The position numbers and the translations under genes are program-made. 64,000 nt of DNA, taken from NCBI RefSeq assembly GCF_029016285.1, contig NZ_CP091975.1, positions 1,302,001-1,366,000 of the forward strand. The letters are read 5' to 3'. Below are positions 38,835 to 54,611 of the stretch, piece after piece (the stretch's first letter is position 1; every line of letters begins with the position of its first letter). The notes beneath the pieces were generated by a model, which saw only the letters and a list, made by a program, of their open reading frames with translations, did no database searches and was not told the DNA's origin. The stretch is from Vibrio sp. DW001. Its GTDB lineage: Bacteria; Pseudomonadota; Gammaproteobacteria; Enterobacterales; Vibrionaceae.

Positions 38835-39188
38835 ATGAACCATGAATTTGGTGACCCAATAGATAGGGTTGTACAAGAATATGTGCCCGGAAAGCAGATA
38901 ACGCTAGCGCATATGGTTGCAAACCCAACAGAAGAACTTTGTGAGCGGATTGGAGTTGTCCATAACGAAGCCATTGGGATACTAACGTTGACTCCGGGTG
39001 AAACAGCTATCATTGCTGGTGATATTGCCACCAAATCGGCAAACGTGGGCATAGGCTTCTTAGACAGATTTTCAGGTTCACTTGTCATTACAGGCTCTGT
39101 AGGGTCAGTAGAGGTCGCTCTTGAAGAGGTCCTGCGGACTCTGGCTGGTGATTTGTGCTATACAACCTGCAAGGCAACTCGCACATGA
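38835..39188 (+). CDS. eutS: Ethanolamine microcompartment shell protein EutS
   Basis: A 117-residue permuted BMC-domain protein that forms bent hexamers in the organelle shell. It starts with [21 protein letters not shown], the EutS/PduU leader forming the small beta-barrel. It then has the BMC core [20 protein letters not shown] and [18 protein letters not shown]. Length is close to E. coli EutS (111). It is the first gene of the operon, as in Enterobacteria, and its TGA overlaps the eutP start. Confidence 0.95.
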
Positions 39189-39664
39189 GTGAGCGCCTTC
39201 ATGAAGGTGCTAGTACATTACCTACTCATTTTGCCGTTATCGGTGAAGTCGATGCTGGTAAGTCAGCATTGATTACTCGTTTGGTTAATCCGCAAGGAAA
39301 CCAAAGGAAAACACAAACGCCAATTTATTATTCTGGTTGCGCGATAGATACCCCAGGTGAATATGTAGATAACCGAGCATGGAATGGTCCTTTGCTGTCA
39401 ACAATCTCGTCAGTAAATACAATTGTCTATTTGCAACCAGCAAATGCAAAAAGATTTTCTGTGCCAGAAGGATTATTAAGAGTCTACCCTAATAAGCGTA
39501 TTGTTGGTGTTATCAGTAAGGTCGATATGGATAATGCTGATGTAGATAAAGCTGAGCGATTTTTGATAAAAAATGATATTGAAGGTCCTTATTTTCATAT
39601 ATCTATTTTCGATGAAGAATCTATAAATAAATTAAGAATTTTTTTGTGCAGTTTAAATAAATAA
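39185..39664 (+). CDS. eutP: EutP, small GTPase-like protein of the eut operon
   Basis: A 159-residue P-loop protein, the same length as E. coli EutP. The G1 loop is [12 protein letters not shown], the Walker B-type region has [14 protein letters not shown], and the G4-like motif is ISKVDMDN. EutP was once called an acetate kinase candidate; its exact role is unsettled. The ATG at 39185 overlaps the eutS stop. The longer frame from 39155 would lie inside eutS and is rejected. Confidence 0.92.
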
Positions 39665-39683
39665 AGCCTTATATAATAAGGCT
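39665..39683 (+). repeat. Tight hairpin between eutP and eutQ
   Basis: AGCCTTAT-ATA-ATAAGGCT, directly after the eutP stop codon, with no T-tract. It could act as an RNA stability or partial termination element. Confidence 0.5.
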
Positions 39684-39698
39684 GTCAAGGTGAAATTA

Positions 39699-40409
39699 AT
39701 GAAAAAATTAATTACTGCTAATGATGTACGCGACGCTAATGCAAAAAGTATAAAAGAGATCGCTATAAAAGCAGGGTTTACTATTGTTACGCCGGAAGCC
39801 TATGACGTTGCGAAAACATTCGGGATATCTCTAATCGAAGAGGGGTCCAGTGCCATACCGACGAAGCCGAATGAAATAACTGTACAAAAGGATTCATCAC
39901 TAACTCCTCCTTCTCCTAAGCAACAAACCTTACACAAAATTAAGGATGAAATTCAGTCCAGAGTCGGTGCCAATGTGGAAAGCGACTTGATTGAATCATT
40001 GATCAAAAAAGCAATGGCGGATTTCAATGTAAAAGCACCGACATGCCCACGCCAGATCAATGATGATGGCATTGTTTTAGTCCGTGGTAATTCGGTAGAG
40101 CTTGATGCATTTGATGGTGCTCCGGGTAAAAATGTGGGGCTAACCGATGTGATTGGAACCGCACAAAATAGTACGTTAGGTGTTGGTTATATGGGATGGG
40201 AGAAAGCGTTTTTCCCTTGGACACTCAACTACGATGAAGTCGATGTGGTACTTGAAGGTGAATTGCATATCAAAACGCCATCTGGCACAACGATAGGCAA
40301 ACCAGGCGATGTTATTTTCATTCCGAAAGGAAGCAGTATTGAATTTGGCACACCGACGCATGTTCGCTTTGTTTATGTCGCATATCCTGCAGATTGGTCA
40401 GAGCAATAG
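39699..40409 (+). CDS. eutQ: EutQ, cupin-fold acetate kinase of the eut operon
   Basis: A 236-residue protein (E. coli 233) with a N-terminal helical stretch (LITANDVRDANAKSIKEI) and a C-terminal cupin, seen in VVLEGELHIKTPSGTTIGK and GDVIFIPKGSSIEFG. In Salmonella EutQ has acetate kinase activity and helps organelle assembly. A GTG at 39690 opens the frame, but the AAGG site fits the ATG at 39699. It would convert acetyl-phosphate from EutD into acetate and ATP. Confidence 0.93.
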   Translation: MKKLITANDVRDANAKSIKEIAIKAGFTIVTPEAYDVAKTFGISLIEEGSSAIPTKPNEITVQKDSSLTPPSPKQQTLHKIKDEIQSRVGANVESDLIESLIKKAMADFNVKAPTCPRQINDDGIVLVRGNSVELDAFDGAPGKNVGLTDVIGTAQNSTLGVGYMGWEKAFFPWTLNYDEVDVVLEGELHIKTPSGTTIGKPGDVIFIPKGSSIEFGTPTHVRFVYVAYPADWSEQ

Positions 40410-40417
40410 GTGGCGTA

Positions 40418-41221
40418 ATGAATACCTTCATTACTGAGGATTTTCTGCGAGCCGAGTTTGGCTTAGCACATGGAAGTGAAGTGCATCTTCCAAAAGAATC
40501 TCGCTTTACGCCTTCTGCTGCAGCATTGCTATCAGAGCGTAAGATATCGATTCGTTATGTTAACGAACAGGGTGAAGTCTTTGTTCCTCAGCGTGACGGC
40601 TCAGGTATTGAAAAAGTTCATCCATTAAAAATAAACAACCAAAGACCACAGAACGGTTGTTGGGCGTGCGGAAGTGATATCACTGACAAACCGTCATATA
40701 TGACGCATTTAGATGACCAAGTTCTTGTGCCAAAAAATCATCCCCGTATAGCGCTTAGAGGAAAGATAGATACCGCTATTTGTTTGTGTGTTGAAGCGCA
40801 GTGTGTTCTGCAAGAACAACCACTCTTCATCACTCATGCAATGTCTGACATTCGCTCCTACCTTGGACAGTTATTGAAATCTGAGGTTACCGGTGAATCG
40901 CTATCTCTTCCTTCCTTTGGCGATATTGATTCTGAAATCATCCATAAGTGGTCACATAATCCATTAAAATATTTAGGCTACGACCACATGTTACCGGAAG
41001 CCAAATTTGGTTTGGATGTCGCTAAGCTCAATACATTGAGAGCCTCTATTCGAGAACTAGAATTAGAAGCGAGTCGAGTATTTATTGATATCAGTATGCG
41101 TTTAGAAAGGGAAGATATTGTTGCGGGGCTAAACCGTCTATCCAGTTCTGTTTATGTGGTGATGATATTAGTATGGCAATGTAAGAACGGTAACGAAAGC
41201 GTCTTAGAGAGATTGAAATAA
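40418..41221 (+). CDS. eutT: EutT, ATP:cob(I)alamin adenosyltransferase
   Basis: A 267-residue enzyme making adenosylcobalamin for EutBC. Its start is [21 protein letters not shown], as in EutT. In Salmonella EutT the metal site motif is H-x11-CC-x2-C. Here it reads His68, eleven residues, Gly80, Cys81, two residues, Cys84, so the first Cys of the pair is a Gly while the other ligands remain. The C-terminal half has [20 protein letters not shown], fitting the all-helical adenosyltransferase fold. The ATG at 40418 has AGGTGG before it; the upstream frame extension into eutQ is rejected. Confidence 0.92.
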
Positions 41222-41222
41222 C

Positions 41223-42194
41223 ATGGAAATTCTAGAGCAGTGTAGGCACAAATGTCGTCAAGCTCCTAAGAGAATCGTCTTTCCCGATACGGACGATGTG
41301 AGGCTTCTTCATGCTGCAAATGAACTGAAGTTAAATGGGTTAGCTGAACCAATTATTCTTGGTAATCCGTTTATGCTTCGTGACCGATCTTATAAAGCAG
41401 GCATAGCAATGCCTTGTTTAACAACGTTAGCACCAGAAACTGCGGGCTGTTTTGATGAAATGGTTCAAATATTCGTCGACAAGCAACGCAAGCCGATAAC
41501 GATAGATGAAGCTCGAAAGCAGGTATCTAATCCCTTGCAATTTTCGGCACTTATGGTTGATCAAGGTTATGCCGACATATGTATAGCGGGTAATTTGTCG
41601 ACAACTGGCGATGTGATTCGCAGCGCAATTCGAGGTATAGGTGTTGCTTCTGGTAGCAAAACAGTATCGAGTTTTTTCTTAATGTTGTCCCCCGATGGCA
41701 CGAAGACTCATGCCTTTGCTGATGCTGGGGTTATTCCTTTGCCGACAACAGAACAGCTTGCAGATATCGCAGTTGATACGGCTAACAACTTTCAACGATT
41801 AACCGGTATCGAACCCCGTGTTGCGATGCTGTCATTTTCTACTAAAGGTAGTGCATCACACCCTGCAGCAAGCAAAATTTCTGAAGCAACAGAATTAGTT
41901 AGACAACGCTGCCCTAATCTTATCATTGACGGTGAAGTTCAATTTGATGCCGCTATAGAGCCTTTAGTCGCCGCTCAAAAAATGCCAAATAGTCCATTAG
42001 GTGGAATGGCAAATGTATTTATTTTCCCTTCTTTAAGTGCTGGCAACATTGCTTATAAAGTTGCACAGCGTTTAGGGGGGTATATTGCTCTGGGACCGAT
42101 GTTGCAAGGGTTAGCAAAACCCATGCATGATCTGTCTCGGGGTTGCAGTTCCGACGATATCGTCGATATATCAGTACTTACGTCATGTATGTAA
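41223..42194 (+). CDS. eutD: EutD, phosphotransacetylase
   Basis: A 323-residue enzyme (E. coli EutD 338) exchanging acetyl-CoA and acetyl-phosphate. It has the family start [20 protein letters not shown], the substrate region [25 protein letters not shown] (middle), and the C-terminal signature [22 protein letters not shown]. It regenerates CoA inside the organelle for EutE. It starts 2 bases after eutT. No N-terminal encapsulation peptide is obvious. Confidence 0.93.
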
Positions 42195-42224
42195 TTAATG
42201 TGAATAAACGTTAGGAGAATTCAA

Positions 42225-42527
42225 ATGGAAGCTCTAGGCATTATAGAAACAAAAGGTCTAACCGCACTTATCGAAGCATCTGATGCAATGGTAAAAGCGG
42301 CACGTGTTGAGTTAGTTGGCTATAAGCAAATTGGCTCAGGTTTAGTAACGGCAATGGTACGAGGCGATGTTGCGGCTTGTAAAGCAGCAACAGATGCAGG
42401 TGCAGCAGCAGCGCAACGTCTAGGCGAAGTAGTAGCGGTTCACGTTATTCCTCGTCCACATGGTGATTTGGAAGCTATCTTCCCAATAACTCAGGCGCCA
42501 GCACCAACACCGGCAGCTAAAAAATAA
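42225..42527 (+). CDS. eutM: EutM, major hexameric BMC shell protein (copy 1)
   Basis: A 100-residue canonical BMC-H protein. It begins [20 protein letters not shown] and has the pore loop [19 protein letters not shown] and the end [14 protein letters not shown]. It is close to E. coli EutM, with a 12-residue Pro/Ala tail after IFPITQ that copy 2 lacks. It forms most of the facets of the shell. A GGAG site precedes it. About 80 percent identical to copy 2 by eye. Confidence 0.96.
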
Positions 42528-42567
42528 ACTATTTTACGAAAAACAATGAATTTATGAGGAAATGCTA

Positions 42568-42846
42568 ATGGATGCGTTAGGCATTATAGAAACAAAAGGG
42601 CTTACCTCCTTAATCGAAGCTTCTGATGCGATGGTAAAAGCGGCTCGTGTTGAGTTAGTTGGTTATGAGCAAATAGGCTCCGGTTATGTAACGGCGTTGG
42701 TACGTGGCGATGTTGCTTCTTGTAAAGCGGCTACAGACGCAGGTGCTGTAGTTGCACAAAAATTGGGAGAACTCGTTGCGGTTCATGTCATTCCAAGGCC
42801 TCACCAAGATCTTGAGAATGTTTTTCCTATTTCTTTGAAAAAATAA
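42568..42846 (+). CDS. eutM: EutM-like BMC shell protein (copy 2)
   Basis: A 92-residue BMC-H protein, a tandem duplicate of the preceding gene. It differs at the residue before the pore loop (YEQIGSG against YKQIGSG), in place of the Lys found in EutM, and lacks the Pro/Ala tail. Glu at that position is also found in PduA-type proteins, from memory. An ATG at 42562 abuts GAGGA, so the one at 42568 with a 7-base spacer is preferred. It would mix in the same facets and could give pores of different charge. Confidence 0.94.
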
Positions 42847-42896
42847 GTTGCGCGTCGCCTCCTTGCTAGGTAGGCGTTAGAAGACAAGGGGGAGAC

Positions 42897-43193
42897 ATGC
42901 GTGTAGCAAAAGTAGTAGGGCAAGTAGTGGCTACAATTCGTAGCCCGGATATGAGAGCGGACAAACTCTGTTTAGTCGAGTTTGTTGATAAGAAAGGTAA
43001 TTCGACGAGTGAAGTCCATGTAGCTATGGATCAACTTGGTGCTGGTGAAGGCGAATGGGTGTTAGTTGTTGCTGGAAGCTCAGCTCGAATGGCCTATGGG
43101 ACAAGTGGTGAGCATTCGCCAATTGATCTTTGCGTCGTTGGAATTATTGATGAGATCACATCAGATAAGAGTGTCCAATACCACAAAAGCTGA
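42897..43193 (+). CDS. eutN: EutN, pentameric shell vertex protein
   Basis: A 98-residue BMC-P protein of the EutN/CcmL type that caps the vertices of the shell. It begins MRVAKVVGQVVATIRSPDM, continues KLCLVEFVD, and includes GAGEGEWVLVVAGSSARM and DLCVVGIIDEI, the family signatures. The length matches E. coli EutN (95). A GGGGGAG site precedes it. Confidence 0.96.
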   Translation: MRVAKVVGQVVATIRSPDMRADKLCLVEFVDKKGNSTSEVHVAMDQLGAGEGEWVLVVAGSSARMAYGTSGEHSPIDLCVVGIIDEITSDKSVQYHKS

Positions 43194-43220
43194 TAAGTAC
43201 CTGGATTAGGGGAAAATAGA

Positions 43221-44615
43221 ATGGATCAGAGCGAAATTGAAGATATTGTCCGTCGGGTTGTTGTTCAACTAAAATCTGACGACCAACCGACGGGCAGTGA
43301 TCATGGTGTATTTGAGTCGCTAGATGATGCGGTTACTGCCGCTCGAGATGCGCAGAAACAGATCCGTAGCTTAGCGGTTCGAGATAATATCATCACCGAA
43401 ATTCGTCGCATGACAAAGAAACATGCAAAAGAGCTTTCTGAATTGGCAGTTGAAGAGACTGGATTCGGTCGTGTGGAAGATAAAATTCGTAAACATTTAC
43501 TGGTCGCTTCAAGAACACCTGGTACTGAAATTCTTACTCCTCAGGCGGTGTCAGGTGATAGTGGATTGAGTCTGATAGAGAATGCTCCATGGGGCGTTAT
43601 TGCATCGGTTACACCCAGTACAAATCCATCTTGTACTGTTATCAATAACTCGATCAGTATGATTGCCGCGGGTAATGGTGTGGTATTTGCACCGCATCCG
43701 GCCGCAAAAAAAGTGTCACAACGTGCTATTCAATTGGTTAATCAGGCTTCAGTTCGAGCTGGTGGGCCACCTAATCTATGCACTACGGTAAAAGTTCCGT
43801 CTTTAGATAATGCGAGAAAGCTTTTTACTTATCCTGGAATCAAACTTTTAGTGGTAACTGGCGGTGACGCCGTTGTTGATGCCGCAAAAGAGATCACAGA
43901 CAAACGTTTAATTGCAGCAGGCCCAGGTAATCCTCCTGTTGTGGTTGATGAAACAGCCGATATTGACCGCGCAGCTGTCTCCATTGTTGAAGGCGCTTCG
44001 TTTGACAACAATATCGTGTGTGCAAGTGAAAAAGAAATTATTGCAGTAGAGTCTATCGCAGACAATCTAATGCATGCGATGACTCAGCATGGAGCCTATG
44101 AAATTAGTGCTAGCCAAGCAGAAGAGATCGCCAAAAAAGTATTGAAAGGTTATCCAGGTAATTCGCCCAGTGCAAATCCTCAGTGGGTTGGAAGAGACGC
44201 AAGTAAGATTGCCGCGACCATTGGATTAGATATACCAGAGTCTACTCGATTACTCGTCTTCCATGCTACCAAAGACAATGTCTTTGCAACCACAGAACAG
44301 ATGATGCCCATTTTACCTGTAATCAAAGCCGCTAATGCAGATCAGGCTATTGATTGGGCAGTAGAGCTTGAATCAGGCAATCATCACACTGCCGCAATTC
44401 ATTCAAAAAATATCGATGTGTTGACGCGAATGGCTTATGAAATAGACAGCAGTCTTCTCGCTAAAAATGGCCCATGTATTGCTGCAATTGGTGCAGGCGG
44501 AGAAGGCTGGACAACCATGACAATCTCTACTCCAACCGGTGAAGGTGTGACCAACTCGTTGACCTTTACACGTAAACGTCGTTGTACGGCGGTCGATTCG
44601 TTTAGGATTATTTAG
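43221..44615 (+). CDS. eutE: EutE, CoA-acylating acetaldehyde dehydrogenase
   Basis: Converts acetaldehyde, NAD and CoA to acetyl-CoA in the organelle. The 464-residue protein has an amphipathic N-terminal encapsulation peptide (DQSEIEDIVRRVVVQLKS) followed by a linker. The catalytic Cys is in NNIVCASEKE near residue 266. The NAD-binding region carries LLVVTGGDAVVDAA. Length agrees with E. coli EutE (467). It starts 27 bases after eutN and ends 3 bases before eutJ. Confidence 0.96.
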   Translation: MDQSEIEDIVRRVVVQLKSDDQPTGSDHGVFESLDDAVTAARDAQKQIRSLAVRDNIITEIRRMTKKHAKELSELAVEETGFGRVEDKIRKHLLVASRTPGTEILTPQAVSGDSGLSLIENAPWGVIASVTPSTNPSCTVINNSISMIAAGNGVVFAPHPAAKKVSQRAIQLVNQASVRAGGPPNLCTTVKVPSLDNARKLFTYPGIKLLVVTGGDAVVDAAKEITDKRLIAAGPGNPPVVVDETADIDRAAVSIVEGASFDNNIVCASEKEIIAVESIADNLMHAMTQHGAYEISASQAEEIAKKVLKGYPGNSPSANPQWVGRDASKIAATIGLDIPESTRLLVFHATKDNVFATTEQMMPILPVIKAANADQAIDWAVELESGNHHTAAIHSKNIDVLTRMAYEIDSSLLAKNGPCIAAIGAGGEGWTTMTISTPTGEGVTNSLTFTRKRRCTAVDSFRII

Positions 44616-44618
44616 TCG

Positions 44619-45461
44619 ATGAATCAACTAGAAATTGTCACTCAACGTCTCGCGGTCATTAACGACCTTGTTAATGATGACACGCCAACAGATACGCCAG
44701 AGAACTGGATCATAGGCGTAGATCTTGGCACCGCAGATATTCAAACCGTGGTTCTAGATGGAGAAGGCGTGCCAATCGCCGCCTTCTTAGATTGGTCAAA
44801 TGTCGTCAATGATGGCGTAGTTGTTGATTATATGGGGGCGTGTCGGATTGTGCGTTCTCAGATAAAGCGGGTTGAAGAAAAGTTATCTATTACGGTTGAG
44901 AGCGCGATTACGTCGTATCCCCCGGGTACTGATCCAAGAATATCAATTAACGTTGTTGAGTCGGCGGGTATTGAAGTGACGAAGGTGATTGACGAACCGT
45001 CAAGTGTCGCAGATCTACTGAATATAGAAAATGGCGCGGTAGTCGATATTGGCGGTGGAACAACAGGTACCGCGGTAATCAAAAATGGGAAGCAGCTTTA
45101 TTCACTAGACGATCCTAGTGGTGGTAGACATGTTTCTTTAGTTATCGCCGGTAGCTTAAAAGTTGATGACGATGAAGCGGAACGCTTGAAGAGAACAAGC
45201 TTTGAAAAGAATGATATTGCCATCATTGTTAGGCCCGTTATCGAAAAAATGGCGGATATTGTTAAGCACCATATTAAAGAGGAGACACCCTCTCATATGT
45301 ACTTAACGGGTGGTGGAACTCTGGTTAACGGCGTGAACAAAATCTTTAGCGCCACGTTTCCAGAAACGGAAATTGTAACCTTCGAGCACGCTCTGTATTT
45401 AACACCGCTCGCGATTGCAAATTATGGCTTAAATCCTGTTGTTCATAGAATAGTGGAGTAA
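44619..45461 (+). CDS. eutJ: EutJ, Hsp70/ASKHA-like chaperone protein
   Basis: A 280-residue actin-fold protein. The first phosphate loop is IGVDLGTADIQTVVLD near residue 30, the second VVDIGGGTTGTAV near residue 144, and the third MYLTGGGTLVNG near residue 228. It resembles the ATPase part of DnaK. The role in the operon is presumed to be protein quality control or assembly. It starts 3 bases after eutE and ends 6 bases before eutG. Confidence 0.93.
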   Translation: MNQLEIVTQRLAVINDLVNDDTPTDTPENWIIGVDLGTADIQTVVLDGEGVPIAAFLDWSNVVNDGVVVDYMGACRIVRSQIKRVEEKLSITVESAITSYPPGTDPRISINVVESAGIEVTKVIDEPSSVADLLNIENGAVVDIGGGTTGTAVIKNGKQLYSLDDPSGGRHVSLVIAGSLKVDDDEAERLKRTSFEKNDIAIIVRPVIEKMADIVKHHIKEETPSHMYLTGGGTLVNGVNKIFSATFPETEIVTFEHALYLTPLAIANYGLNPVVHRIVE

Positions 45462-45467
45462 CTGACA

Positions 45468-46709
45468 ATGTCGTTTTCTCGTGAAGAATTAGTCCAAGTG
45501 GTCACTAATAGTATTCAGCAGTCGAAACTCTACAAAGGCTTTTTCTTCCGTTCACCTGCTATTACTTTAACGGGCGGGTATAGCGTCAATCAAATTGGTG
45601 ATGTGCTGATTGAGTTAGGCGTAGCCAAAGTGTTCATCGTTGTAGATAAAATGGTATATCAACTTGGTTTACTTGAAGGTTGTCAGCATTCTCTGACCTT
45701 TGCTGGAATTGAATACACTATTTTTAGCGAAGTAGTTGGCGAACCAGATTCAGACATTATCAGCAAATGCATACAGAAGATGAAAACCGCTGATGCTGAC
45801 TTTGTTCTCGGCATTGGTGGTGGCTCTGCTTTAGACGTAGCAAAAGCCGTGGCTGTTATGGTCGATTATACAGGCAGTATCAGTGATTTTAAGGTCGGAG
45901 GATTGGCGTCTCGTCGGGTTGGTTTAGGTGCTATTCCGACAACGGCTGGTACGGGCTCGGAAGTCACCGATATTACGGTGGTTAAAGATCTTGCCACTGG
46001 CGTAAAACTACCGATTAAAGGACCAGCACTGGTTCCGGATTTGGCAATTATTGATCCCGCATTGATGTTAGGTGTTCCACCGGAAGTGACCGCTGCGACA
46101 GGTGTAGATACATTAACGCACGCAATTGAAGCGTATGTTTCAAGAGGGTCTAACCCATTATCTAAAGCTTATGCCTATCATGCAGTGGAAGCTGTCGCCC
46201 GATCGTTACGTAGAGCCGTTGGTTGTGGCGACAACTTGGATGATCGATACGATATGGCTGTAGCTGCCTATAAAGCAGGGCTTGCTTTCAGTAATGCGGG
46301 TCTTGGCCTAACCCACGCAATATCACATCAAATCGGTTCTCAATTTCACATTCCTCATGGAACGGCTAATGCCATTTTGCTTCCTTATGTCATGGCATTT
46401 AATGCCCTTGTCAGTGAATCAGAATATGCAGAGTTAGCCGTCGCTTTAGGTGTGGCGAGAGAAAATATGACTCAAAGAGAGTGCTGCTGGGCGGCAATTA
46501 AAGCCGTCAGCCAACTCGTTCAGGATCTCGGGCTACCCACTTCGTTAGCTCATGTAGATATACATCTTGAGTCCATGCTGTCGCTTGCTGAAGATGCATT
46601 AGACGATATTTGCTTAGGCGGCAATCCACGCACAGTGACAGCAAAGCAGATCATTTCGTTACTGCAGGATGTTGTTAGCGGCTCGATTTCTGGTGAGGTT
46701 ATTGTATGA
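45468..46709 (+). CDS. eutG: EutG, iron-dependent alcohol dehydrogenase
   Basis: Reduces acetaldehyde to ethanol and regenerates NAD inside the organelle. The 413-residue protein is of iron-type ADH class. GIGGGSALDVAKAVAV is the NAD loop. Metal ligands are visible in THAIEAYVS and in the histidine cluster LTHAISHQIGSQFHIPHGTAN. The N-terminus (SREELVQVVTNSIQQS) is amphipathic and may be an encapsulation peptide. Its last codons overlap the eutA start by 4 bases. Confidence 0.94.
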   Translation: MSFSREELVQVVTNSIQQSKLYKGFFFRSPAITLTGGYSVNQIGDVLIELGVAKVFIVVDKMVYQLGLLEGCQHSLTFAGIEYTIFSEVVGEPDSDIISKCIQKMKTADADFVLGIGGGSALDVAKAVAVMVDYTGSISDFKVGGLASRRVGLGAIPTTAGTGSEVTDITVVKDLATGVKLPIKGPALVPDLAIIDPALMLGVPPEVTAATGVDTLTHAIEAYVSRGSNPLSKAYAYHAVEAVARSLRRAVGCGDNLDDRYDMAVAAYKAGLAFSNAGLGLTHAISHQIGSQFHIPHGTANAILLPYVMAFNALVSESEYAELAVALGVARENMTQRECCWAAIKAVSQLVQDLGLPTSLAHVDIHLESMLSLAEDALDDICLGGNPRTVTAKQIISLLQDVVSGSISGEVIV

Positions 46710-48136
46710 ATACTAAGTTAATCACTAGCGTAGGGATTGATGTTGGTACCACCACAACTCAAGTCATATTCTCGCGATTAACATTGGTTAACCGTGCACC
46801 AGCATCGCAAGTGCCTGTCTACGAATTCATCGATAGGAAAGTAATCTATCAAAGTCCCGTCATATTTACGCCAATCAACTTTGATGGCGTGATTGACAAT
46901 GAAAAAATCAAACAGTTTATAGAAGAACAAATATCCCTTGCAGGCATCACGCATGATGATATTGAGAGCGGCGCGATTATTATCACGGGTGAAACCGCGA
47001 AAGCGAAAAATGCACGTTCTTCTCTTCTCCATCTTTCACAGGAAATGGGTGACTTTGTTGTTGCTACTGCGGGTCCGCATTTAGAGTCCATTATTGCTGG
47101 TCGGGGTAGTGGTGCTCAACAGGTGTCCGAATCGAATCATCGTCGTGTTATGAACATTGATATCGGTGGTGGCACCGCCAATTTTGTTGTTTTTGATTGT
47201 GGTCGAGTAGTTGATACCGCCTGTATCAATATAGGTGGCAGGCTCATTCAGCTTGGAGAACAGGGACAAGTGACCTATCTATCCGAAGCTGGAGCCATGT
47301 TGGTAAAAGAGGTCTTTGGGGAGCAGATCAGTCCCAATGCATTAACGAAAGACCATATTAAACGTATTAGTAACAAAATGGCCGATATATTGTTCGGGTT
47401 GATAAGAGGGGAGAACACCCAGATTACTGCTCGATTATTACAAACGGCAGAGCTCAAGCAGCTTGATGATATTGATTCCATTTATATCAGTGGTGGTGTG
47501 GGTAAGTGCTTGTTTGAAGAACGAGTTGCACCCATTAACGATCTGACATTTGGTGACATGGGTCCGATGCTCGCTCGATCAATGCTAAGACACACTGAAT
47601 TTGAAAGGTTGCCATTTATAGAACCAAAACAGACAGTGAGAGCAACAGTTATTGGTGCTGGTGCTCATTCACTTTCTCTTTCTGGTTCAACTATATGGTT
47701 AGAATTAGAGAGCTTACCAATAAAGAACGTTCCAGTTATCCATCCAACAATTGATTGGAACGACCCAGATTTTGATGTTAGCAAGGAAATTTGTATCTGT
47801 GCTGAACGGATGGATATTGCCCTTGCTACGGACCAATATGCTATTGCACTAGATAGTAGCATGCCGACTAAATACCGCGCGGTGCTCCAAGCTGTCAAAG
47901 GACTCGAGCAGTTTTATCGTTTACATGGTAATCACAACGATTCAGCACTAATAATTTCTCATAATGATATAGGCAAAGCACTCGGAATGGAGTTACAACC
48001 GTTGCTTTTACCTCAACCGCTTGCGGTTATTGATGAAGTTGCTACCCGAGAAGGGGACTACATCGATATTGGTAAAAGTTATTTTGGAGGGGAGATTGTT
48101 CCTCTCACGGTGAAATCTCTCGCGTTTCCGTCATAA
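46706..48136 (+). CDS. eutA: EutA, reactivating factor of ethanolamine ammonia-lyase
   Basis: A 476-residue ASKHA protein that exchanges inactivated cobalamin on EutBC for fresh adenosylcobalamin using ATP. The phosphate loop is SVGIDVGTTTTQVIF near residues 10-22, the second MNIDIGGGTANFVVFD, and the adenosine region YISGGVGKCLF. The length matches E. coli EutA (467). It overlaps eutG by 4 bases and precedes eutB by 11 bases, so the three are co-translated. Confidence 0.95.
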   Translation: MNTKLITSVGIDVGTTTTQVIFSRLTLVNRAPASQVPVYEFIDRKVIYQSPVIFTPINFDGVIDNEKIKQFIEEQISLAGITHDDIESGAIIITGETAKAKNARSSLLHLSQEMGDFVVATAGPHLESIIAGRGSGAQQVSESNHRRVMNIDIGGGTANFVVFDCGRVVDTACINIGGRLIQLGEQGQVTYLSEAGAMLVKEVFGEQISPNALTKDHIKRISNKMADILFGLIRGENTQITARLLQTAELKQLDDIDSIYISGGVGKCLFEERVAPINDLTFGDMGPMLARSMLRHTEFERLPFIEPKQTVRATVIGAGAHSLSLSGSTIWLELESLPIKNVPVIHPTIDWNDPDFDVSKEICICAERMDIALATDQYAIALDSSMPTKYRAVLQAVKGLEQFYRLHGNHNDSALIISHNDIGKALGMELQPLLLPQPLAVIDEVATREGDYIDIGKSYFGGEIVPLTVKSLAFPS

Positions 48137-48147
48137 AGGAGTGGCTA

Positions 48148-49515
48148 ATGATTTTGAAAACTCGTCTGTTTGGTCAGACATATCAATTCTCAGACGTGAA
48201 AGAAGTGATGGCGAAAGCGTCCGATCTTCGCTCAGGAGATGTACTCGCTGGTATTGCAGCGTCTAGCTCTCAAGAGAGGGTTGCTGCGAAACAGGTGTTG
48301 TCTGAATTGACACTTAGAGACTTGCGTGAAAACCCTGCAGTTCCATATGAACTCGATGTGATCACGAGGATAAATCAGGACAGCTTGAATCGAGCTGTTT
48401 ATGAAAAAATCCAGAGCTGGACCGTAAGCGAACTACGAGAGTATGTGCTTTCTAATACGCCGAGCAGAGAAGAATTCCAGAGGCTCAGCAAAGGGCTAAC
48501 GGCTGAGATGGTTTCTGCAACGGCAAAGCTTTGTTCGAATGCCGACCTAATGTTTGGCGCGAAAAAATTACCAGTTGTAACTAAGGCGAATAGTACCGTA
48601 GGTATTCCCGGCCACTTTAGCTGTCGATTACAACCCAATGATACACGCGACAATATAAATTCAATTTTGGCGCAAACCTACGAAGGTCTTACGTATGGAT
48701 GTGGCGACGCAGTAATCGGTATTAATCCTGTAACCGACAGTGTCGAAAATACCACTCAAATGCTTAACGCAATTCAAGATGTCATTAATAAATTTGAGAT
48801 CCCAACACAGCCTTGTGTGTTGGCACATATCACTACTCAAATGGAAGCGGTTCGTAAAGGTGCGCCAGGAGGTCTTTTATTCCAGAGTATTTCCGGTTCT
48901 GAAAAAGGGTTGTCTGAGTTTGGCGTTTCTGTTGCGATGTTGGATGAAGCCTATGAAATAGGCAAACAGTATTGTCATTTAGCTGGCGACAATATGATGT
49001 ATTTTGAAACAGGGCAAGGTTCTGCGTTATCTGCTGATGCTCACTATGGCGCAGACCAAATGACAATGGAAGCGCGTTGTTATGGGCTGGCTCGCCGTTA
49101 TAAGCCGCACCTAGTTAATACTGTGGTTGGATTTATTGGCCCTGAATATCTCTATAATCACCAACAGATTATCCGTGCAGGCTTAGAAGACCACTTTATG
49201 GGCAAACTATCTGGCCTGCCTATGGGTTGTGATGCCTGTTATACAAACCATGCCGATACCGATCAGAACTCAAATGAGAACTTAGTAACGTTGTTAGCGG
49301 CATCAGGTATCAACTTTGTTATCGGTATGCCTATGGGGGACGACATTATGCTGAACTATCAGACAAATGCCTTTCACGATACTGCGACGGTTCGTCAATT
49401 ATTAGGGCTAAGACCTGCTCCAGAATTTGAAAAATGGATGGAGAAAATGGGGCTGCTAGAAAACGGGCTATTAACTGCAAAAGCTGGTGACCCTTCAATT
49501 TTCTTTAATCGATAA
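48148..49515 (+). CDS. eutB: Ethanolamine ammonia-lyase large subunit
   Basis: The catalytic subunit of the adenosylcobalamin-dependent enzyme that converts ethanolamine to acetaldehyde and ammonia. The 455-residue protein (E. coli 453) shows IPGHFSCRLQPNDTRDN, the region GCGDAVIGINPVTD, SAQGQ-like ETGQGSALSADAHYGAD, and MGCDACYTNHADTDQN. Core residues for substrate binding lie in these motifs. It is followed 12 bases later by eutC. Confidence 0.97.
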   Translation: MILKTRLFGQTYQFSDVKEVMAKASDLRSGDVLAGIAASSSQERVAAKQVLSELTLRDLRENPAVPYELDVITRINQDSLNRAVYEKIQSWTVSELREYVLSNTPSREEFQRLSKGLTAEMVSATAKLCSNADLMFGAKKLPVVTKANSTVGIPGHFSCRLQPNDTRDNINSILAQTYEGLTYGCGDAVIGINPVTDSVENTTQMLNAIQDVINKFEIPTQPCVLAHITTQMEAVRKGAPGGLLFQSISGSEKGLSEFGVSVAMLDEAYEIGKQYCHLAGDNMMYFETGQGSALSADAHYGADQMTMEARCYGLARRYKPHLVNTVVGFIGPEYLYNHQQIIRAGLEDHFMGKLSGLPMGCDACYTNHADTDQNSNENLVTLLAASGINFVIGMPMGDDIMLNYQTNAFHDTATVRQLLGLRPAPEFEKWMEKMGLLENGLLTAKAGDPSIFFNR

Positions 49516-49527
49516 GCGGAGATAACA

Positions 49528-50412
49528 ATGAACGATAAAAATATACAAGATATTGTCTCAGCCGTTTTACAACAGCTTGGAGAAAAGGATGTCTCCGCTT
49601 CAACGGTTAAGAGAGTTGTTAGTGAAGAAATCACACCAGTTGTAAATGATGGCTCACTGCCTGATTTAGGCGACGATGAATTCAAAAACTGGAACGGTGT
49701 GGTTAATGCTCAAGATCCTAAAATAATTGAGGACCTGATCACTCAAACAGGAGCTCGAGTTGGAAATGGTTGTGCGGGACCTCGTCCTAGGACAACGGCA
49801 TTGATGCGTTTCTGGGCCGATCACTCCCGTTCGAAAGACACAGTAATTAAGAACATCAGTGAGCAGTGGTTGAAAGACCATGATTTAGTAGAGGCTAAAA
49901 GCCAGGCTAAAGATAAAGATGAATACCTAACGCGTCCAGATCTGGGTCGAAAACTTTGCCCTGATAGTCGAGATATTATCACTAAAAATTGTGAGCAGTC
50001 ACCACAGGTTCAGGTGGTTCTGTCTGATGGATTGAGTATGGATGCTATCACAAGCAATCTGGATGAAATTCTCCCTCCGTTGATGAATGGCATAAAGAAT
50101 GCTGGGCTTAAAACAAATGCACCATTTTTCCTTAGATACGGTCGTGTAAAAGCTCAGGACGAAATCGGTGAACTACTCAATGCAGAAGTGAATATTCTGT
50201 TAATTGGTGAGAGACCAGGGCTTGGACAGTCGGAATCGTTGAGCTGTTATGCGATCTATAAACCGACTAAAGATACCGTGGAATCTGATCGTACCGTTAT
50301 TTCGAATATTCATAGCGGTGGAACTCCACCGGTGGAAGCGGCTGCCGTAATAGTCGATTTAATTAAAACGATGCTGGAACAAAAAACCAGCGGCATCAAT
50401 TTAAAAAGATAG
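49528..50412 (+). CDS. eutC: Ethanolamine ammonia-lyase small subunit
   Basis: The 294-residue partner of EutB (E. coli 295) that helps hold the cobalamin. A short N-terminal helix, DKNIQDIVSAVLQQLGEK, is the known encapsulation signal, followed by a linker. The core starts WNGVVNAQDPK... with RVGNGCAGPRPRT and YLTRPDLGRKL, then VLSDGLSMDAI and LIGERPGLGQSESLSCY. The end FSGGxPP appears as IHSGGTPPVEAA. Confidence 0.97.
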   Translation: MNDKNIQDIVSAVLQQLGEKDVSASTVKRVVSEEITPVVNDGSLPDLGDDEFKNWNGVVNAQDPKIIEDLITQTGARVGNGCAGPRPRTTALMRFWADHSRSKDTVIKNISEQWLKDHDLVEAKSQAKDKDEYLTRPDLGRKLCPDSRDIITKNCEQSPQVQVVLSDGLSMDAITSNLDEILPPLMNGIKNAGLKTNAPFFLRYGRVKAQDEIGELLNAEVNILLIGERPGLGQSESLSCYAIYKPTKDTVESDRTVISNIHSGGTPPVEAAAVIVDLIKTMLEQKTSGINLKR

Positions 50413-50421
50413 AGGTGAACG

Positions 50422-51078
50422 ATGGCTATTCAAGACAAAATTCCAGCATCTGTATTAGCAACCAGAGTGATTGCATCGGTTGAATCAGAATATGCTAAAG
50501 CACTTAAATTAAAGCCGAATCAAGTCAGTATTGGTTTGATTACTAGTGATTGTGATGATGTTACGTATTGTGCGCTAGATGAAGCAACAAAAGCCGCCAA
50601 CGTAGAAGTCGTATACGCTCGTTCATTCTATGCTGGTGCGGCACACTCATCTGGACCTACATCTGGTGAAGTCATCGGTATCATTGCTGGTGAATGTCCA
50701 GCAGATGTCATTGCAGGTTTAGACCGTTGCAAGGAAGTAATAGAAAACGAGGCAGCGTTCCAGACAGCAAATGAAGCTGGAGATATTGCTTATTTTGCAC
50801 ACTTAGTCACCTCAACAGGCAGTTACCTTTCTGCGGAAGCGGATGTAGAACAAGGTGATGCATTGGCGTATCTAATTGCGCCACCGTTGGAAGCCATGTT
50901 TGCTATTGACGCGGCGCTAAAATCAGCTGATGTTCAATTGAAAAACTTGTTTGAACCACCATCAGAAACAAACTTTGCTGGCGCTCATTTAGTTGGTTCT
51001 CAAGCGGCTTGCCGTGCTGCCTGCGAAGCGTTTGCTGAAGCGGTAATTAGCATTGCTAGCAACCCAATCTCTCACTAA
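50422..51078 (+). CDS. eutL: EutL, trimeric tandem-BMC shell protein
   Basis: A 218-residue shell protein of two BMC folds, nearly the same length as E. coli EutL (219). It begins with [17 protein letters not shown] and carries the EutL-type motifs [21 protein letters not shown] and [12 protein letters not shown]. The second half is [16 protein letters not shown]. EutL trimers have a central pore that opens and closes and can bind ethanolamine. Here it is followed by a PduS-like gene rather than eutK. Confidence 0.95.
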
Positions 51079-51089
51079 GGCACGTTAAC

Positions 51090-52433
51090 ATGAGCTCATT
51101 TTTAGATAAAGTCAGAGATGCTGGTGTCGTTGGTGCAGGAGGGGCTGGTTTTCCTACTTACGTAAAGCTAGATTGCAAAGTCGATCTGGTTCTTGCGAAC
51201 GGTGCTGAATGCGAACCTTTGCTAAACAAAGATCAAGTCGTTATGCAGATCTGGGCAGATGAAATGCTCGGCGGCATGTTACTCGCGATGAAACAAACAG
51301 GGGCGTCGCAAGCTATTATCGGTATCAAAGACAAGCATCAAGATACTATCGAGATAATTGAAAGCGCAATTCAAAAACTAACAAAACCTGAAGAATTTTC
51401 GGTTTTGCAAATGCGTGACGTCTATCCAGCAGGCGATGAAGTCGAGCTGATTTACGAAGCGACAGGGAAGCGAGTGCCTTCAGGCGGTCTTCCGAAAGAT
51501 ATTGGCGTTTTGGTGCAAAATTCTGAGTCATATATAAATATATTTAGAGCGGCGATAGATCAACCTGTTACACATACGATGCTGACCGTTCATGGTGAGG
51601 TGCAATCGCCTTATACGGCATGGTTGCCTGTCGGTATTTCGGTCTCTGACGCTCTGGACATTGCGGGTGGGACAACCTGTGATGACTTCATTATTATTGA
51701 TGGCGGCCCAATGATGGGTGGGGTGGTCAAGTCTCTTGATCAGCCGATAACACGGCTTTCAAGTGGCTTTATCGTTATTCCTAAATCATCGTCATTGGCG
51801 GTTAAAAAGACGATGCCAGAATCGACGTATCGACGTATTGGTAAAGCGGCTTGTGACCAATGTAGTTTGTGTACTTCGATGTGCCCACGAAACATGTTGG
51901 GGTATCCCATAAAACCTCATTTAGTCATGCGAGCATTACAGACATCAGGTCCTAATAGTGAAACGTATGCCTTATCGGCTCAAGCGTGCAGTGAATGTAA
52001 CCTTTGTTCGATGTGGTCTTGTCCTGAAGGTTTAGACCCGAGGAATATGTGCGTAACCACTAAACGTGATTTACGTGAATCGGGAAGGCTGATGACCCCT
52101 GAACAGTTGCAAGGGCAAACTGTAGAGGTGCACCCAATGCGTGATTATCGAGGTGTTCCTACTAAGCGATTGATTCAGCGTTTGGGCTTAGTGCAATACA
52201 GCAAAACAGAAGCCAAAAATCTAGAAGGTGAATTTGACTTTAAATACGTCAACATTCCACTAAAACAGCATATCGGAGCGCCTGCTCAAGCGTGTGTCAA
52301 AGTGGGTGAAAATGTGACGGTTGGTCAAGTGATTGGTTTGGCATTAGACGATGCTTTGAGCGTCAACATTCATGCAAGCATCGCTGGTAAAGTGACCTCT
52401 GTCACCGAGCAGCATGTCGTGATAACGAAATAG
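51090..52433 (+). CDS. pduS: PduS-like corrin reductase (RnfC-type flavin/Fe-S protein)
   Basis: A 447-residue protein resembling PduS of the propanediol organelle (451 residues), which reduces cob(III)alamin for adenosylation. The N-terminus has the glycine loop DAGVVGAGGAGFPTYVKL for flavin and NADH. The two 4Fe-4S sites are CDQCSLCTSMCP and CSECNLCSMWSCPEG, near residues 256 and 298. The C-terminal part ends with a SLBB/RnfC-like domain. Such a gene is not part of the enterobacterial eut operon. It starts 12 bases after eutL, and pduT-like follows with no gap. It would supply reduced corrin to EutT. Confidence 0.9.
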   Translation: MSSFLDKVRDAGVVGAGGAGFPTYVKLDCKVDLVLANGAECEPLLNKDQVVMQIWADEMLGGMLLAMKQTGASQAIIGIKDKHQDTIEIIESAIQKLTKPEEFSVLQMRDVYPAGDEVELIYEATGKRVPSGGLPKDIGVLVQNSESYINIFRAAIDQPVTHTMLTVHGEVQSPYTAWLPVGISVSDALDIAGGTTCDDFIIIDGGPMMGGVVKSLDQPITRLSSGFIVIPKSSSLAVKKTMPESTYRRIGKAACDQCSLCTSMCPRNMLGYPIKPHLVMRALQTSGPNSETYALSAQACSECNLCSMWSCPEGLDPRNMCVTTKRDLRESGRLMTPEQLQGQTVEVHPMRDYRGVPTKRLIQRLGLVQYSKTEAKNLEGEFDFKYVNIPLKQHIGAPAQACVKVGENVTVGQVIGLALDDALSVNIHASIAGKVTSVTEQHVVITK

Positions 52434-52994
52434 ATGAGTAAAAATATGATTAATGCAATTGGATGTATCGAGCTTAATTCTATCGCACGTGGTTTTTTTG
52501 TTGCTGATGTAATGTTAAAAGCGGCGCAAGTTGAAATAATTTTTAACCGTAGTATCTGTCCGGGAAAATTCATGGTGATGATATGCGGAGATGTTGCTGC
52601 GGTAAACGCATCAGTAGAAGCCGGTATGATCGCAGGTGGTACTGAGATTGTAGATGACCTAATAATTTCAAATGTTCATGAAGATGTATTTCCTGCGATC
52701 TCAGGTACGCGAGTCGTTGAGCGTACAGATGCGCTTGGAATTATCGAGACATTTTCAGTCGCTTCGATAGTTGAAGCTGCAGATGCTGCCGTGAAAGCGG
52801 CAAATGTTGAACTGCTTGAAGTCCATATGGCAATGGCCATTGGAGGCAAGGGATACGTCACTTTAACCGGAGACGTCGCTTCAGTTACTGCTGCAGTAGA
52901 GGCGGGTGCTGAGTGTATTAAACATAAAGGATTGCTCGTGGATAAGGTTGTGATTGCCCAACCACGCAAGGAAATATTGGCTGACAAAGTATAA
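52434..52994 (+). CDS. pduT: PduT-like tandem-BMC shell protein with Fe-S cysteine
   Basis: A 186-residue tandem BMC protein (PduT is 184). The first domain has the pore-loop motif SICPGKFMVMICGD with Cys42, matching the Cys38 region of PduT from Citrobacter that ligates a central 4Fe-4S cluster at the trimer axis. The second domain is [26 protein letters not shown], with the loop AIGGKGYVTLTGD where PduT has a Cys that is Gly here. It starts immediately after the pduS-like stop (TAGATG), so they are coupled. The two would pass electrons across the shell. Confidence 0.92.
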   Translation: MSKNMINAIGCIELNSIARGFFVADVMLKAAQVEIIFNRSICPGKFMVMICGDVAAVNASVEAGMIAGGTEIVDDLIISNVHEDVFPAISGTRVVERTDALGIIETFSVASIVEAADAAVKAANVELLEVHMAMAIGGKGYVTLTGDVASVTAAVEAGAECIKHKGLLVDKVVIAQPRKEILADKV

Positions 52995-53091
52995 AAATAA
53001 GGAGCACTAGCTAGTTAGTAAATAGATAGAAAAATTAAACAGAAAATAAACTAGAACAAACAGTATGTTAACTAAAAAATTATAGGGATGC

Positions 53092-53121
53092 ATCAATCCG
53101 TACCCTACAAGAAGGATTGAT
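53092..53121 (+). repeat. Inverted repeat ahead of the permease gene
   Basis: ATCAATCC and GGATTGAT, 8-bp perfect arms, separated by a 14-base loop, in the 192-base gap between pduT-like and eat. No T-tract follows. It could be an RNA element or a regulator site that adjusts permease expression. No function is claimed. Confidence 0.45.
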
Positions 53122-53186
53122 CCGTCATATCACTTGGTAGTCAGACGATGATTACTGGGTTAAAAATTAAATCATACGGGTGGCTT

Positions 53187-54611
53187 ATGTCTGAAAATAA
53201 AGCAAGTGATTTTGGTTCCTCCGAGTTTATGCATGAACGACAGCTTAAGAAAGGTGTAGCTGGTTGGTTTTTGCTCGCGACGCTAGGGGTATCTTACGTA
53301 ATATCAGGAGACTATGCAGGGTGGAACTTTGGTATCGCTACTGCTGGTTGGGGTGGGATGTTAATCGCATCGGTGTTGATGGGAATAATGTACCTAACAT
53401 TGGTGTTGTCATTGGCAGAAATGTCGGCAGCGATACCAACAGCAGGCGGTGGTTACAGCTTCGCTAGGAAAGTAATGGGGCCGATCGGCGGCTATGCCAC
53501 GGGTTTAGCGGTATTAATAGAGTATGCAATAGCACCTGCTGCCATTGTCATCTTTATTGGTGGTTACCTTGAAGCATTAGTTGGGTGGAACGGACCAACG
53601 GTGTATGCCGTTTTTTATGCAATATTTATTGGTATCCATTTGATTGGTGCTGGTGAAGCACTACGTATAATGCTTGTTATTACAGCATTAGCTGTTGTCG
53701 CAATCATTGCAACTGCATTTGGGTTGATCCCCTATTTTGAAGTGGCTAACCTTTTTGATATACCAGCCAACCCAGCAATAGCAGGCGCAACGACGTTCTT
53801 ACCACAAGGTTGGAATGGCGTTTGGGCTGCATTACCATTTGGTATGTGGTTATTCCTAGCAGTAGAAGGTGTACCTTTGGCTGCGGAAGAAGCAAAAGAT
53901 CCCGCGAAGGATATGCCTAAAGGTATCATCGCGGCAATGATATTCCTATTAATCACGGCCGTTGGGGTAATGTTGTTAGTTCCTGGTGCTGCCGGTGCTA
54001 AAGCTACTGCCGGGTATGCCGCGCCATTAGTCGATGCGTTGCGTGCTGTTCATGGTGAAGATTCCATGTTAGCCAACTTCGTGAACGTGGTTGGTTTGAC
54101 TGGCCTTATTGCGTCATTCTTCTCAATTATTTATGGTTATAGTCGTTTAGTATTCGCACTTTCGAGAGCGGGTTACCTACCAGCGTTCTTATCATTAACA
54201 GGTAAGCGTAAAGTACCAGTTTGGGCATTGATCATTCCAGGGATTGTAGGTTTCTTAGCGTCACTAACTGGTGAAGGTGATCGCATGATCATGATCGCGG
54301 TGTTTGGTGCAACAATCTCTTATGCTCTACAAGCTTATAGCCATATCTTGTTGAGAAAAAATGAACCTGATTTGGAACGTCCTTATAAAACACCAGGTGG
54401 CATCATTACGCCTTGGATCACGATAGTTCTTTCGTTACTAGCTCTATCATCATGTTTTGTATATGACGCAACAGCGGCATTCTGGGCTGTAGGTTTATAT
54501 GTGATTGGTATGGCTTACTACTTTATCTTTAAGCATAAAGAAGTATCTAAGCATACTGCGGAAGAAGAATTTGAAGCAATCTTTAAAGCAGAAGCGGAAC
54601 TGGATGATTAA
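53187..54611 (+). CDS. eat: Ethanolamine permease (APC superfamily, Eat)
   Basis: An inner membrane ethanolamine:H+ type importer of the amino acid-polyamine-organocation family, used in many bacteria instead of EutH. It starts LKKGVAGWFLLATLGVSYVISGDYAGWNFG and contains LSLAEMSAAIPTAGGGYSFARK, both characteristic. About twelve membrane segments are expected. An in-frame ATG at 53148 would add 13 residues but has a poorer start signal. The protein is 474 residues from the ATG at 53187. It is last in the operon and is followed by a terminator. Confidence 0.9.
   Translation: MSENKASDFGSSEFMHERQLKKGVAGWFLLATLGVSYVISGDYAGWNFGIATAGWGGMLIASVLMGIMYLTLVLSLAEMSAAIPTAGGGYSFARKVMGPIGGYATGLAVLIEYAIAPAAIVIFIGGYLEALVGWNGPTVYAVFYAIFIGIHLIGAGEALRIMLVITALAVVAIIATAFGLIPYFEVANLFDIPANPAIAGATTFLPQGWNGVWAALPFGMWLFLAVEGVPLAAEEAKDPAKDMPKGIIAAMIFLLITAVGVMLLVPGAAGAKATAGYAAPLVDALRAVHGEDSMLANFVNVVGLTGLIASFFSIIYGYSRLVFALSRAGYLPAFLSLTGKRKVPVWALIIPGIVGFLASLTGEGDRMIMIAVFGATISYALQAYSHILLRKNEPDLERPYKTPGGIITPWITIVLSLLALSSCFVYDATAAFWAVGLYVIGMAYYFIFKHKEVSKHTAEEEFEAIFKAEAELDD

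What the first reader, a model, noticed from the sequence alone, without database searches (positions are those of the whole stretch)
38835..54611. Hybrid eut/pdu microcompartment operon: ethanolamine core with a PduS-PduT redox shell pair
The gene order S-P-Q-T-D-M-M'-N-E-J-G-A-B-C-L is the enterobacterial order minus eutH, eutK and eutR. Directly after eutL come a PduS-like reductase with two 4Fe-4S motifs and a PduT-like tandem-BMC protein that keeps the ICPGKF cysteine of the shell Fe-S site. Both belong to propanediol organelles. This suggests electrons can cross the shell to recharge cobalamin for an ethanolamine enzyme, a combination I do not recall as described in detail.
Basis: partly seen in the sequence, partly recalled or inferred. 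Interest (0 to 1): 0.85.

Follow-up and report, generated by a model that had tools for sequence, protein, structure and literature searches.

The report
Marine ethanolamine organelle with electron-export pair
A marine bacterium carries an ethanolamine-eating protein organelle whose operon ends with two electron-carrying proteins that probably let surplus electrons leave the compartment; the arrangement is shared by marine relatives and is not a propanediol hybrid.

Summary
The genes are there as described (38835-54611): a eut operon ending in PduS, PduT and an eat permease. It is no one-off hybrid. Of 329 genomes of the family (Vibrionaceae, inferred), 14 have EutL over cut-off, and 14 of 14 keep this order through PduS-PduT. 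In the order, 4 of 9 further EutL-bearing genomes share it; 4 enterobacterial-type loci have eutK-eutR instead and one is EUT2-like. EutB, PduS and PduT tell one history: the pair joined the operon once, in a lineage sister to enterobacterial EUT1. It is not derived from propanediol operons: this genome's own pdu copies are 39% and 43% identical, and a joint PduT clade is rejected (p 0.011). Inward electron flow to recharge cobalamin is the weaker mechanism: published potentials make export downhill; 40 of 46 genomes with the pair outside eut/pdu loci show neither EutB nor PduC; and the eut-type pair sits in glycyl-radical Vibrio loci. Conclusion: a conserved EUT1-like subtype with its own probable electron-export pair; a new variant of a known kind.

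The parts
38835..39188 (+). eutS, BMC shell protein
   Evidence: NCBIfam PRK15468.1 142 bits, cut-off 123
39155..39664 (+). eutP (the start is more likely the ATG at 39185)
   Evidence: EutP/PduV model 95.6 bits, below cut-off 138; 38% to E. coli EutP
39690..40409 (+). eutQ
   Evidence: PRK15457.1 239 bits, cut-off 193
40394..41221 (+). eutT, cobalamin adenosyltransferase (start more likely ATG 40418); H-x12-C-x2-C motif kept
   Evidence: PRK15020.1 276 bits, cut-off 226; alignment
41223..42194 (+). eutD, pta-type phosphotransacetylase
   Evidence: PRK09653.1 365 bits, cut-off 310
42225..42527 (+). eutM, BMC-H
   Evidence: PRK15474.1 168 bits, cut-off 133
42562..42846 (+). second eutM paralogue, BMC-H
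   Evidence: PRK15474.1 158 bits, cut-off 133
42897..43193 (+). eutN, vertex protein
   Evidence: PRK15448.1 102 bits, below cut-off 118; 51% to E. coli EutN
43221..44615 (+). eutE, acylating aldehyde dehydrogenase
   Evidence: PRK15398.1 648 bits, cut-off 403; 60% to E. coli EutE
44619..45461 (+). eutJ
   Evidence: PRK15080.1 315 bits, cut-off 182
45468..46709 (+). eutG, iron-type alcohol dehydrogenase
   Evidence: 39% to E. coli EutG over 395 columns; EutG equivalog 299 bits, below cut-off 556
46706..48136 (+). eutA, lyase reactivase
   Evidence: best EutA model 560 bits, below cut-off 769; 49% to E. coli EutA
48148..49515 (+). eutB, ethanolamine ammonia-lyase large subunit
   Evidence: PRK15067.1 648 bits, cut-off 554; tree
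49528..50412 (+). eutC, ethanolamine ammonia-lyase small subunit
   Evidence: PRK05465.1 299 bits, cut-off 230
50422..51078 (+). eutL, BMC-T shell protein
   Evidence: TIGR04502.1 343 bits, cut-off 300
51090..52433 (+). PduS-like flavo-Fe-S reductase of the EUT-specific clade
   Evidence: Pfam Complex1_51K, Fer4_17, RnfC_N over cut-off, SLBB 26.6 bits just below 27; two tetracysteine motifs; tree
52434..52994 (+). PduT-like tandem-BMC shell protein with pore cysteine Cys42
   Evidence: two BMC stretches; best solved chains 3nwg, 3pac, 3n79; tree
53148..54611 (+). eat-type ethanolamine permease
   Evidence: TIGR00908.1 510 bits, cut-off 382

Best explanation
The locus encodes an EUT1-like ethanolamine metabolosome of a marine gammaproteobacterial subtype in which an EUT-specific PduS-PduT pair stands where enterobacteria have eutK-eutR. 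Inferred working: EutBC with adenosylcobalamin makes ammonia and acetaldehyde inside the shell; EutE turns acetaldehyde into acetyl-CoA and makes NADH; EutG can turn NADH back into NAD+ by making ethanol. PduS (FMN plus two 4Fe-4S clusters) oxidises lumenal NADH and hands electrons to the Fe-S cluster held by Cys42 in the PduT trimer pore, and so to a cytosolic acceptor. This relieves the demand that half the acetaldehyde become ethanol. Reduced PduS may also help EutT reduce cobalamin, as a side or second role. Shown here: gene content, conservation, motifs, clade and co-inheritance. Inferred: cofactor occupancy, contact between the two proteins, and direction of electron flow.
For: Gene order and identity. 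Same order in 14 of 14 EutL-bearing genomes of the family and in 4 of the 9 others of the order. Both tetracysteine motifs in 128 of 128 PduS rows and a CPGK-type motif in 127 of 128 PduT rows (the sets hold duplicate loci). Distances of EutB, PduS and PduT correlate at r 0.90-0.91 over 22 loci, 0 of 9999 permutations as high. Among 46 genomes whose pair lies in a stretch without eut or other pdu hits (two have a pduW hit), 4 have EutB and 2 the B12 diol dehydratase, so 40 of 46 show neither; of these, 30 were checked for other BMC genes and 30 of 30 have them. Eut-type PduS-PduT sits at the end of glycyl-radical loci where no pduC, pduD, pduG or pduO was hit. Potentials of the Citrobacter proteins favour outward flow (PMC2982820, passages).
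Against: EutG is kept in every such locus whose stretch covers that region, so export has not replaced internal NAD+ recycling. The potentials were measured on Citrobacter proteins, not these. Citrobacter PduS does reduce cobalamin. The eut-type PduS lacks the longer N-terminus of PDU-type PduS, and in Pdu the PduS N-terminus was implicated in docking to PduT, so docking here is unproven. Many of the 46 genomes are MAGs and may be incomplete, and some stretches are cut by contig ends.
Confidence: 0.58

Rival explanations
1. Cobalamin maintenance: PduS uses lumenal NADH to reduce cob(III)/cob(II)alamin for EutT, and PduT serves mainly as its anchor in the shell.
For: Citrobacter PduS performs both one-electron cobalamin reductions and binds cobalamin (PMC2982820, passages). 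EutT and EutBC are in the same operon here.
Against: The marine EutT keeps the H-x12-C-x2-C motif in 14 of 14 rows aligned, so there is no sign of a defect that PduS repairs. The 4 enterobacterial-type loci have the same B12 chemistry and no PduS in the stretch held. The pair recurs where no B12 signature enzyme was found.
Confidence: 0.25
2. Inward supply: a cytosolic donor feeds electrons through PduT to PduS to recharge cobalamin.
For: The two genes are adjacent and a shell cluster could in principle carry electrons either way (inference).
Against: In Pdu the PduT cluster is at +99 mV and PduS at -150/-262 mV, with cob(II)/cob(I)alamin at -610 mV (PMC2982820): inward flow is uphill at each step.
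Confidence: 0.05
3. PduT is chiefly another shell pore and PduS a minor flavin reductase; the pair is kept for reasons unrelated to electron transfer.
For: I know of no biochemistry on these particular proteins; EutG is retained.
Against: The pore cysteine and all eight PduS cluster cysteines are kept in nearly all rows, and PduS and PduT sit together in both eut and glycyl-radical loci with matching trees.
Confidence: 0.12

Closest known systems
EUT1 loci of Enterobacteriaceae (E. coli, Salmonella)
   Same: Same gene order S-P-Q-T-D-M-N-E-J-G..A-B-C-L, pta-type EutD, EutG; EutB 69% identical to E. coli; sister clade in the EutB tree
   Different: No eutK, eutR or internal eutH; second eutM; PduS-PduT after eutL; eat (or, in 9 of the 14 family loci, an EutH-like permease) at the end
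EUT2B/EUT2D loci with PduS (Axen 2014, PMC4207490, passages seen)
   Same: Ethanolamine organelle with PduS
   Different: EUT2 loci usually have a PduL-like phosphotransacetylase and another regulator; the seven EUT2 rows in my trees (Desulfosporosinus and Bacillota MAGs) are a separate PduS/PduT clade
PduT-like shell protein of the C. difficile and Listeria eut operons (PMC3483176, one passage; PMC8547011, passages)
   Same: A PduT-type shell protein in a eut operon, with a redox-carrier hypothesis in Listeria
   Different: No gene named PduS in the stretches fetched (the Listeria stretch starts inside the neighbouring pdu genes); PduT very divergent, on long branches
PduS-PduT of PDU1 propanediol loci, including this genome's own
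   Same: Domain make-up, adjacency, Fe-S motifs
   Different: 39% and 43% identical to the own copies; separate clades; longer PduS N-terminus
PduS/PduT of glycyl-radical microcompartments (Ferlez 2019, PMC6325248, passages seen)
   Same: The pair in B12-free organelles, with electron-transfer hypotheses
   Different: Different signature enzyme; that paper states that GRM4 lacks PduS and PduT, whereas the Vibrionaceae GRM4-like loci here end with the eut-type pair

Membership tests
EUT1 (as described by Axen 2014) | EutB, EutC and reactivase EutA | tested here: met
   (EutA below its NCBIfam cut-offs but 49% to E. coli EutA)
EUT1 (as described by Axen 2014) | pta-type EutD | tested here: met
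   PRK09653.1 over cut-off
EUT1 (as described by Axen 2014) | EutG alcohol dehydrogenase | tested here: met
   39% to E. coli EutG, though below the NCBIfam EutG cut-off
EUT1 (as described by Axen 2014) | EutR regulator in the locus | tested here: not met
   no EutR hit in the marine loci; best genome hits 26-28% identical and elsewhere. Hence filed as an EUT1-like sister subtype, not canonical EUT1
PDU/EUT fusion locus | propanediol and ethanolamine signature enzymes in one locus | tested here: not met
   no diol dehydratase among the operon genes; the only match to the dehydratase family in the genome is on the other contig
PDU-type PduS/PduT | clusters with PduS/PduT of propanediol loci | tested here: not met
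   trees; AU test p 0.011 for PduT
PduS protein family (works like) | FMN domain, two 4Fe-4S motifs, RnfC barrel | tested here: met
PduS protein family (works like) | NADH oxidation, cobalamin reduction, binding to PduT | not testable with these tools
   needs purified protein
PduT protein family (works like) | tandem BMC with pore cysteine | tested here: met
TIGR02526 eut_PduT equivalog | score over 250.3 bits | tested here: not met
   132 bits; 0 of 39 genomes searched reach it, genomes with pdu loci included, so the model is narrow

The most novel reading that the evidence does not exclude
PduS-PduT is a self-contained electron-export cassette that microcompartments exchange regardless of their chemistry. 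In marine Gammaproteobacteria one lineage of it became a fixed part of the ethanolamine organelle and was later passed to a B12-free glycyl-radical organelle in Vibrionaceae, so 'cobalamin reductase' is a secondary use of a general outlet for electrons.
Probability: 0.42. Interest if true: 0.62.

Novelty: new variant of a known kind. Interest (0 to 1): 0.45.

Why it matters
How closed protein organelles balance NADH, and whether electrons cross a protein shell, is an open question. This clade gives a natural comparison: sister ethanolamine organelles with the same core enzymes, with the pair (marine) and without it (enterobacterial), plus the same lineage of the pair in a glycyl-radical organelle of the same bacterial family. 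That lets experiment separate the cobalamin-repair and electron-export hypotheses.

Tried and rejected
Recent copy of the genome's own pdu genes: rejected, 39% and 43% identity and separate clades. Compensation for a broken EutT metal site: no support, motif kept in the 14 of 14 marine rows given (that the motif binds metal is recalled). Replacement of EutG: rejected, EutG kept. Non-organelle role for pairs outside eut/pdu loci: not supported, 30 of 30 such genomes checked (of 46) have BMC genes beyond the pair. RNA families and tRNAs in the window: none found. Promoter-like sites 22 against 38 in shuffles, terminator-like 22 against 14: uninformative. A DNA search of plasmid records gave only partial matches, 16 records, none over 80% of the query.

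Limits. Rows dropped: tree 49 left out 16 duplicate loci or short reads (112 of 128 sequences, plus the window); tree 61 also left out L005, L150 and L139. In one search four rows labelled 'sat' (L087-L090) are second copies of eut loci, and L005 is the own pdu locus; the group counts printed there are off by that. L045 and L135 carry identical proteins and are probably one genome. One search shows 18 of 24 eut-type and 7 of 9 PDU-type PduS rows, the rest failing the anchor pattern; one EUT2 row also has a start at 14.
Full report
Observation. ORFs, families and order agree with the finding. The E. coli K-12 order was read from its annotation. The window operon lacks eutH, eutK and eutR, doubles eutM, and closes with PduS, PduT and an eat permease. 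PduS shows Complex1_51K, Fer4_17 and RnfC_N domains (SLBB just under cut-off) and two tetracysteine motifs; PduT has two BMC domains and Cys42 in ICPGKF, in register with position 38 of the solved chain 3n79.

The same genome has its own propanediol locus. A BMC scan of the whole genome found a second locus on the other contig. Its ORFs run from pduA to pduW with pduS and pduT (names by homology to window genes or by recall; no pduJ seen), and the genome's one diol-dehydratase match lies there. PduS is 39% and PduT 43% identical between the two loci, so the eut pair is no recent copy.

How common is it? Of 329 genomes of the family, 14 have EutL over cut-off. All 14, the window included, have the order S..L-PduS-PduT followed by eat (5) or an EutH-like permease (9). 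Of 394 genomes of the order, 10 have EutL over cut-off, own genome included. Of the other nine, four have the pair after eutL, four enterobacterial-type loci have eutK-eutR there instead, and one is EUT2-like (one stretch starts inside the operon and one ends inside it). A class-wide draw found only the own genome in 369. A PduT-driven scan of genome contigs (biased by design) added Shewanella benthica, Paraglaciecola, Exilibacterium and Marinobacter loci. Four loci of the last three genera (L007, L018, L028, L056) keep EutH between eutG and eutA, and Paraglaciecola and Exilibacterium have a small BMC protein between eutL and PduS.

Lineage. PduT tree of 113 rows: the 24 eut-type rows form one supported set (99/80) with five rows nested inside it that come from other Vibrionaceae loci (two of them identical). 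KSB1 and Gemmatimonadota pairs are next; PDU and EUT2 rows are far away. PduS agrees (short search, SH-aLRT only): the corresponding set has support 94, its two halves 99 each. Holding eut-type and PDU-type PduT (with four related Vibrio loci) together as one clade is rejected (p-AU 0.011); that tree has very long branches for the C. difficile and Listeria rows. EutB (34 rows): marine loci one clade (98/90), enterobacterial EUT1 its sister (100/99), EUT2 as outgroup. Within 22 marine loci EutB, PduS and PduT distances correlate at r 0.90-0.91, and at 0.81-0.86 within the 18-locus subclade, with 0 of 9999 permutations as high. The simplest reading is one acquisition, then descent with the operon.

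Evidence on mechanism. (a) The nested rows: in two genomes of the window's genus (L168, L169) the order is pduA-pduB-[3.6 kb]-pduF-K-L-M-N-P-Q-U-W-alcohol dehydrogenase-PduS-PduT, with no hit to pduC, pduD, pduG or pduO. In L168 the 3.6 kb hold an 839-aa glycyl radical enzyme and its activase; in L169 I did not scan them. L170 has a glycyl radical enzyme and a divergent PduT without a PduS hit. L045 (Photobacterium pectinilyticum) has the same right-hand part; its signature enzyme lies outside the stretch held. So the eut-type pair also sits in a glycyl-radical organelle. The label GRM4-like rests on gene order and on how PMC8217296 and PMC4207490 describe GRM4 (passages). (b) Of the 80 loci, 46 have the pair (one of them PduT only) and no eut or other pdu-type hit, save pduW in two; some are cut by contig ends. 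Of 46 genomes, 4 have EutB and 2 the B12 diol dehydratase, leaving 40 with neither. The EutB search rang in E. coli; the dehydratase search rang in none of the 14 control genomes but did in the own genome. Thirty of the 46 were also searched for BMC domains, and all 30 have some beyond the pair. Many are MAGs. (c) In one Calditrichota locus the pair is followed by 2-oxoacid:ferredoxin oxidoreductase genes, a hint only; neighbours scanned in the KSB1, Gemmatimonadota, Ignavibacteriales and Planctomycetes loci L008, L011, L034 and L024 gave no redox partner. (d) Potentials measured on Citrobacter proteins make flow from NADH through PduS to PduT downhill, and those authors already suggested electron passage out of the compartment (PMC2982820, passages). 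(e) Against pure export: EutG is kept wherever its region is held, and Citrobacter PduS does reduce cobalamin.

A difference to test. The eut-type PduS has a possible start 14 residues before the GxGGAGFP motif in 18 of 18 rows shown (of 24), as have the four glycyl-radical-type rows (three distinct). The seven PDU rows shown (of nine) have none at 14; their longest candidates are 27-49 residues. In Pdu the PduS N-terminus was implicated in binding PduT (PMC2982820), so the docking mode may differ.

Literature. Already in print: PduS in EUT2B and EUT2D (PMC4207490, passages); PduT in the C. difficile eut operon (PMC3483176, one passage); a PduT-like redox-carrier hypothesis for Listeria eut (PMC8547011, passages); PduS/PduT electron-transfer hypotheses in glycyl-radical organelles (PMC6325248, passages). 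The BMC catalogue (PMC8217296, passages and one section) has no PduS or PduT by name in its main text. Khatri 2012 lists eut proteins in Vibrio and Photobacterium (PMC3542024, first of four parts). A Vibrio sp. VB16 genome paper mentions an 18-gene eut operon with a microcompartment in the albus clade (PMC10868602, passages and one section); the search listings count no 'pdus' or 'pdut' in it. Genome G260, 95-100% identical gene by gene across the operon and with a 3.64 Mb contig, is probably that strain (inference). The listings of searches showed me no paper describing PduS-PduT in marine EUT1-type operons. The library lacks most subscription journals, and supplementary files could not be read.

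Verdict. Real, well conserved, and not a propanediol hybrid: an EUT1-like subtype with its own electron-carrier pair. The organisation appears undescribed in what I could search, while the general idea of PduT as a redox carrier in ethanolamine organelles is not new.

Changes on checking.

Noticed in passing
L168, L169, L045 (and L170): Vibrionaceae GRM4-like loci in which PduS-T is missing between pduQ and pduU but the eut-type PduS-PduT stands at the end; PMC6325248 (passages) states that GRM4 lacks both. L170 has only a divergent PduT with CPGR.
   Followed up: partly
G000:C2:1130141-1144317 (L005, L006): Propanediol locus on the second large contig of the same genome, with its own PduS and PduT.
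   Followed up: yes
L016:8419-13824: Calditrichota PduS-PduT followed by 2-oxoacid:ferredoxin oxidoreductase genes, a possible electron partner.
   Followed up: partly
L038:2434-10573: Calditrichota locus with a BMC-H protein bearing a weak helix-turn-helix match (EutK-like), pta-type EutD, two EutM-like proteins, EutE, EutJ, PduS and PduT but no eutB or eutC hit in the 20.6 kb held: signature enzyme unknown.
   Followed up: partly
42225-42846: Tandem eutM paralogues, also hit in the other marine loci L091-L106 and L108.
   Followed up: partly
56191-57963: A methyl-accepting-chemotaxis-like gene appears in three adjoining or overlapping open frames, suggesting a frameshift or sequencing error (by eye, not scanned).
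   Followed up: no
L018:10625-11686, L028:10612-11673, L019:4355-5416: A quinolinate synthase (nadA)-like gene (Pfam hit on the L018 copy; the other two by clustering) directly after PduT in three Marinobacter loci; may be chance.
   Followed up: no
38513-38557: 20-pair inverted repeat between the mipA-like gene and eutS, terminator-like on the minus strand.
   Followed up: no
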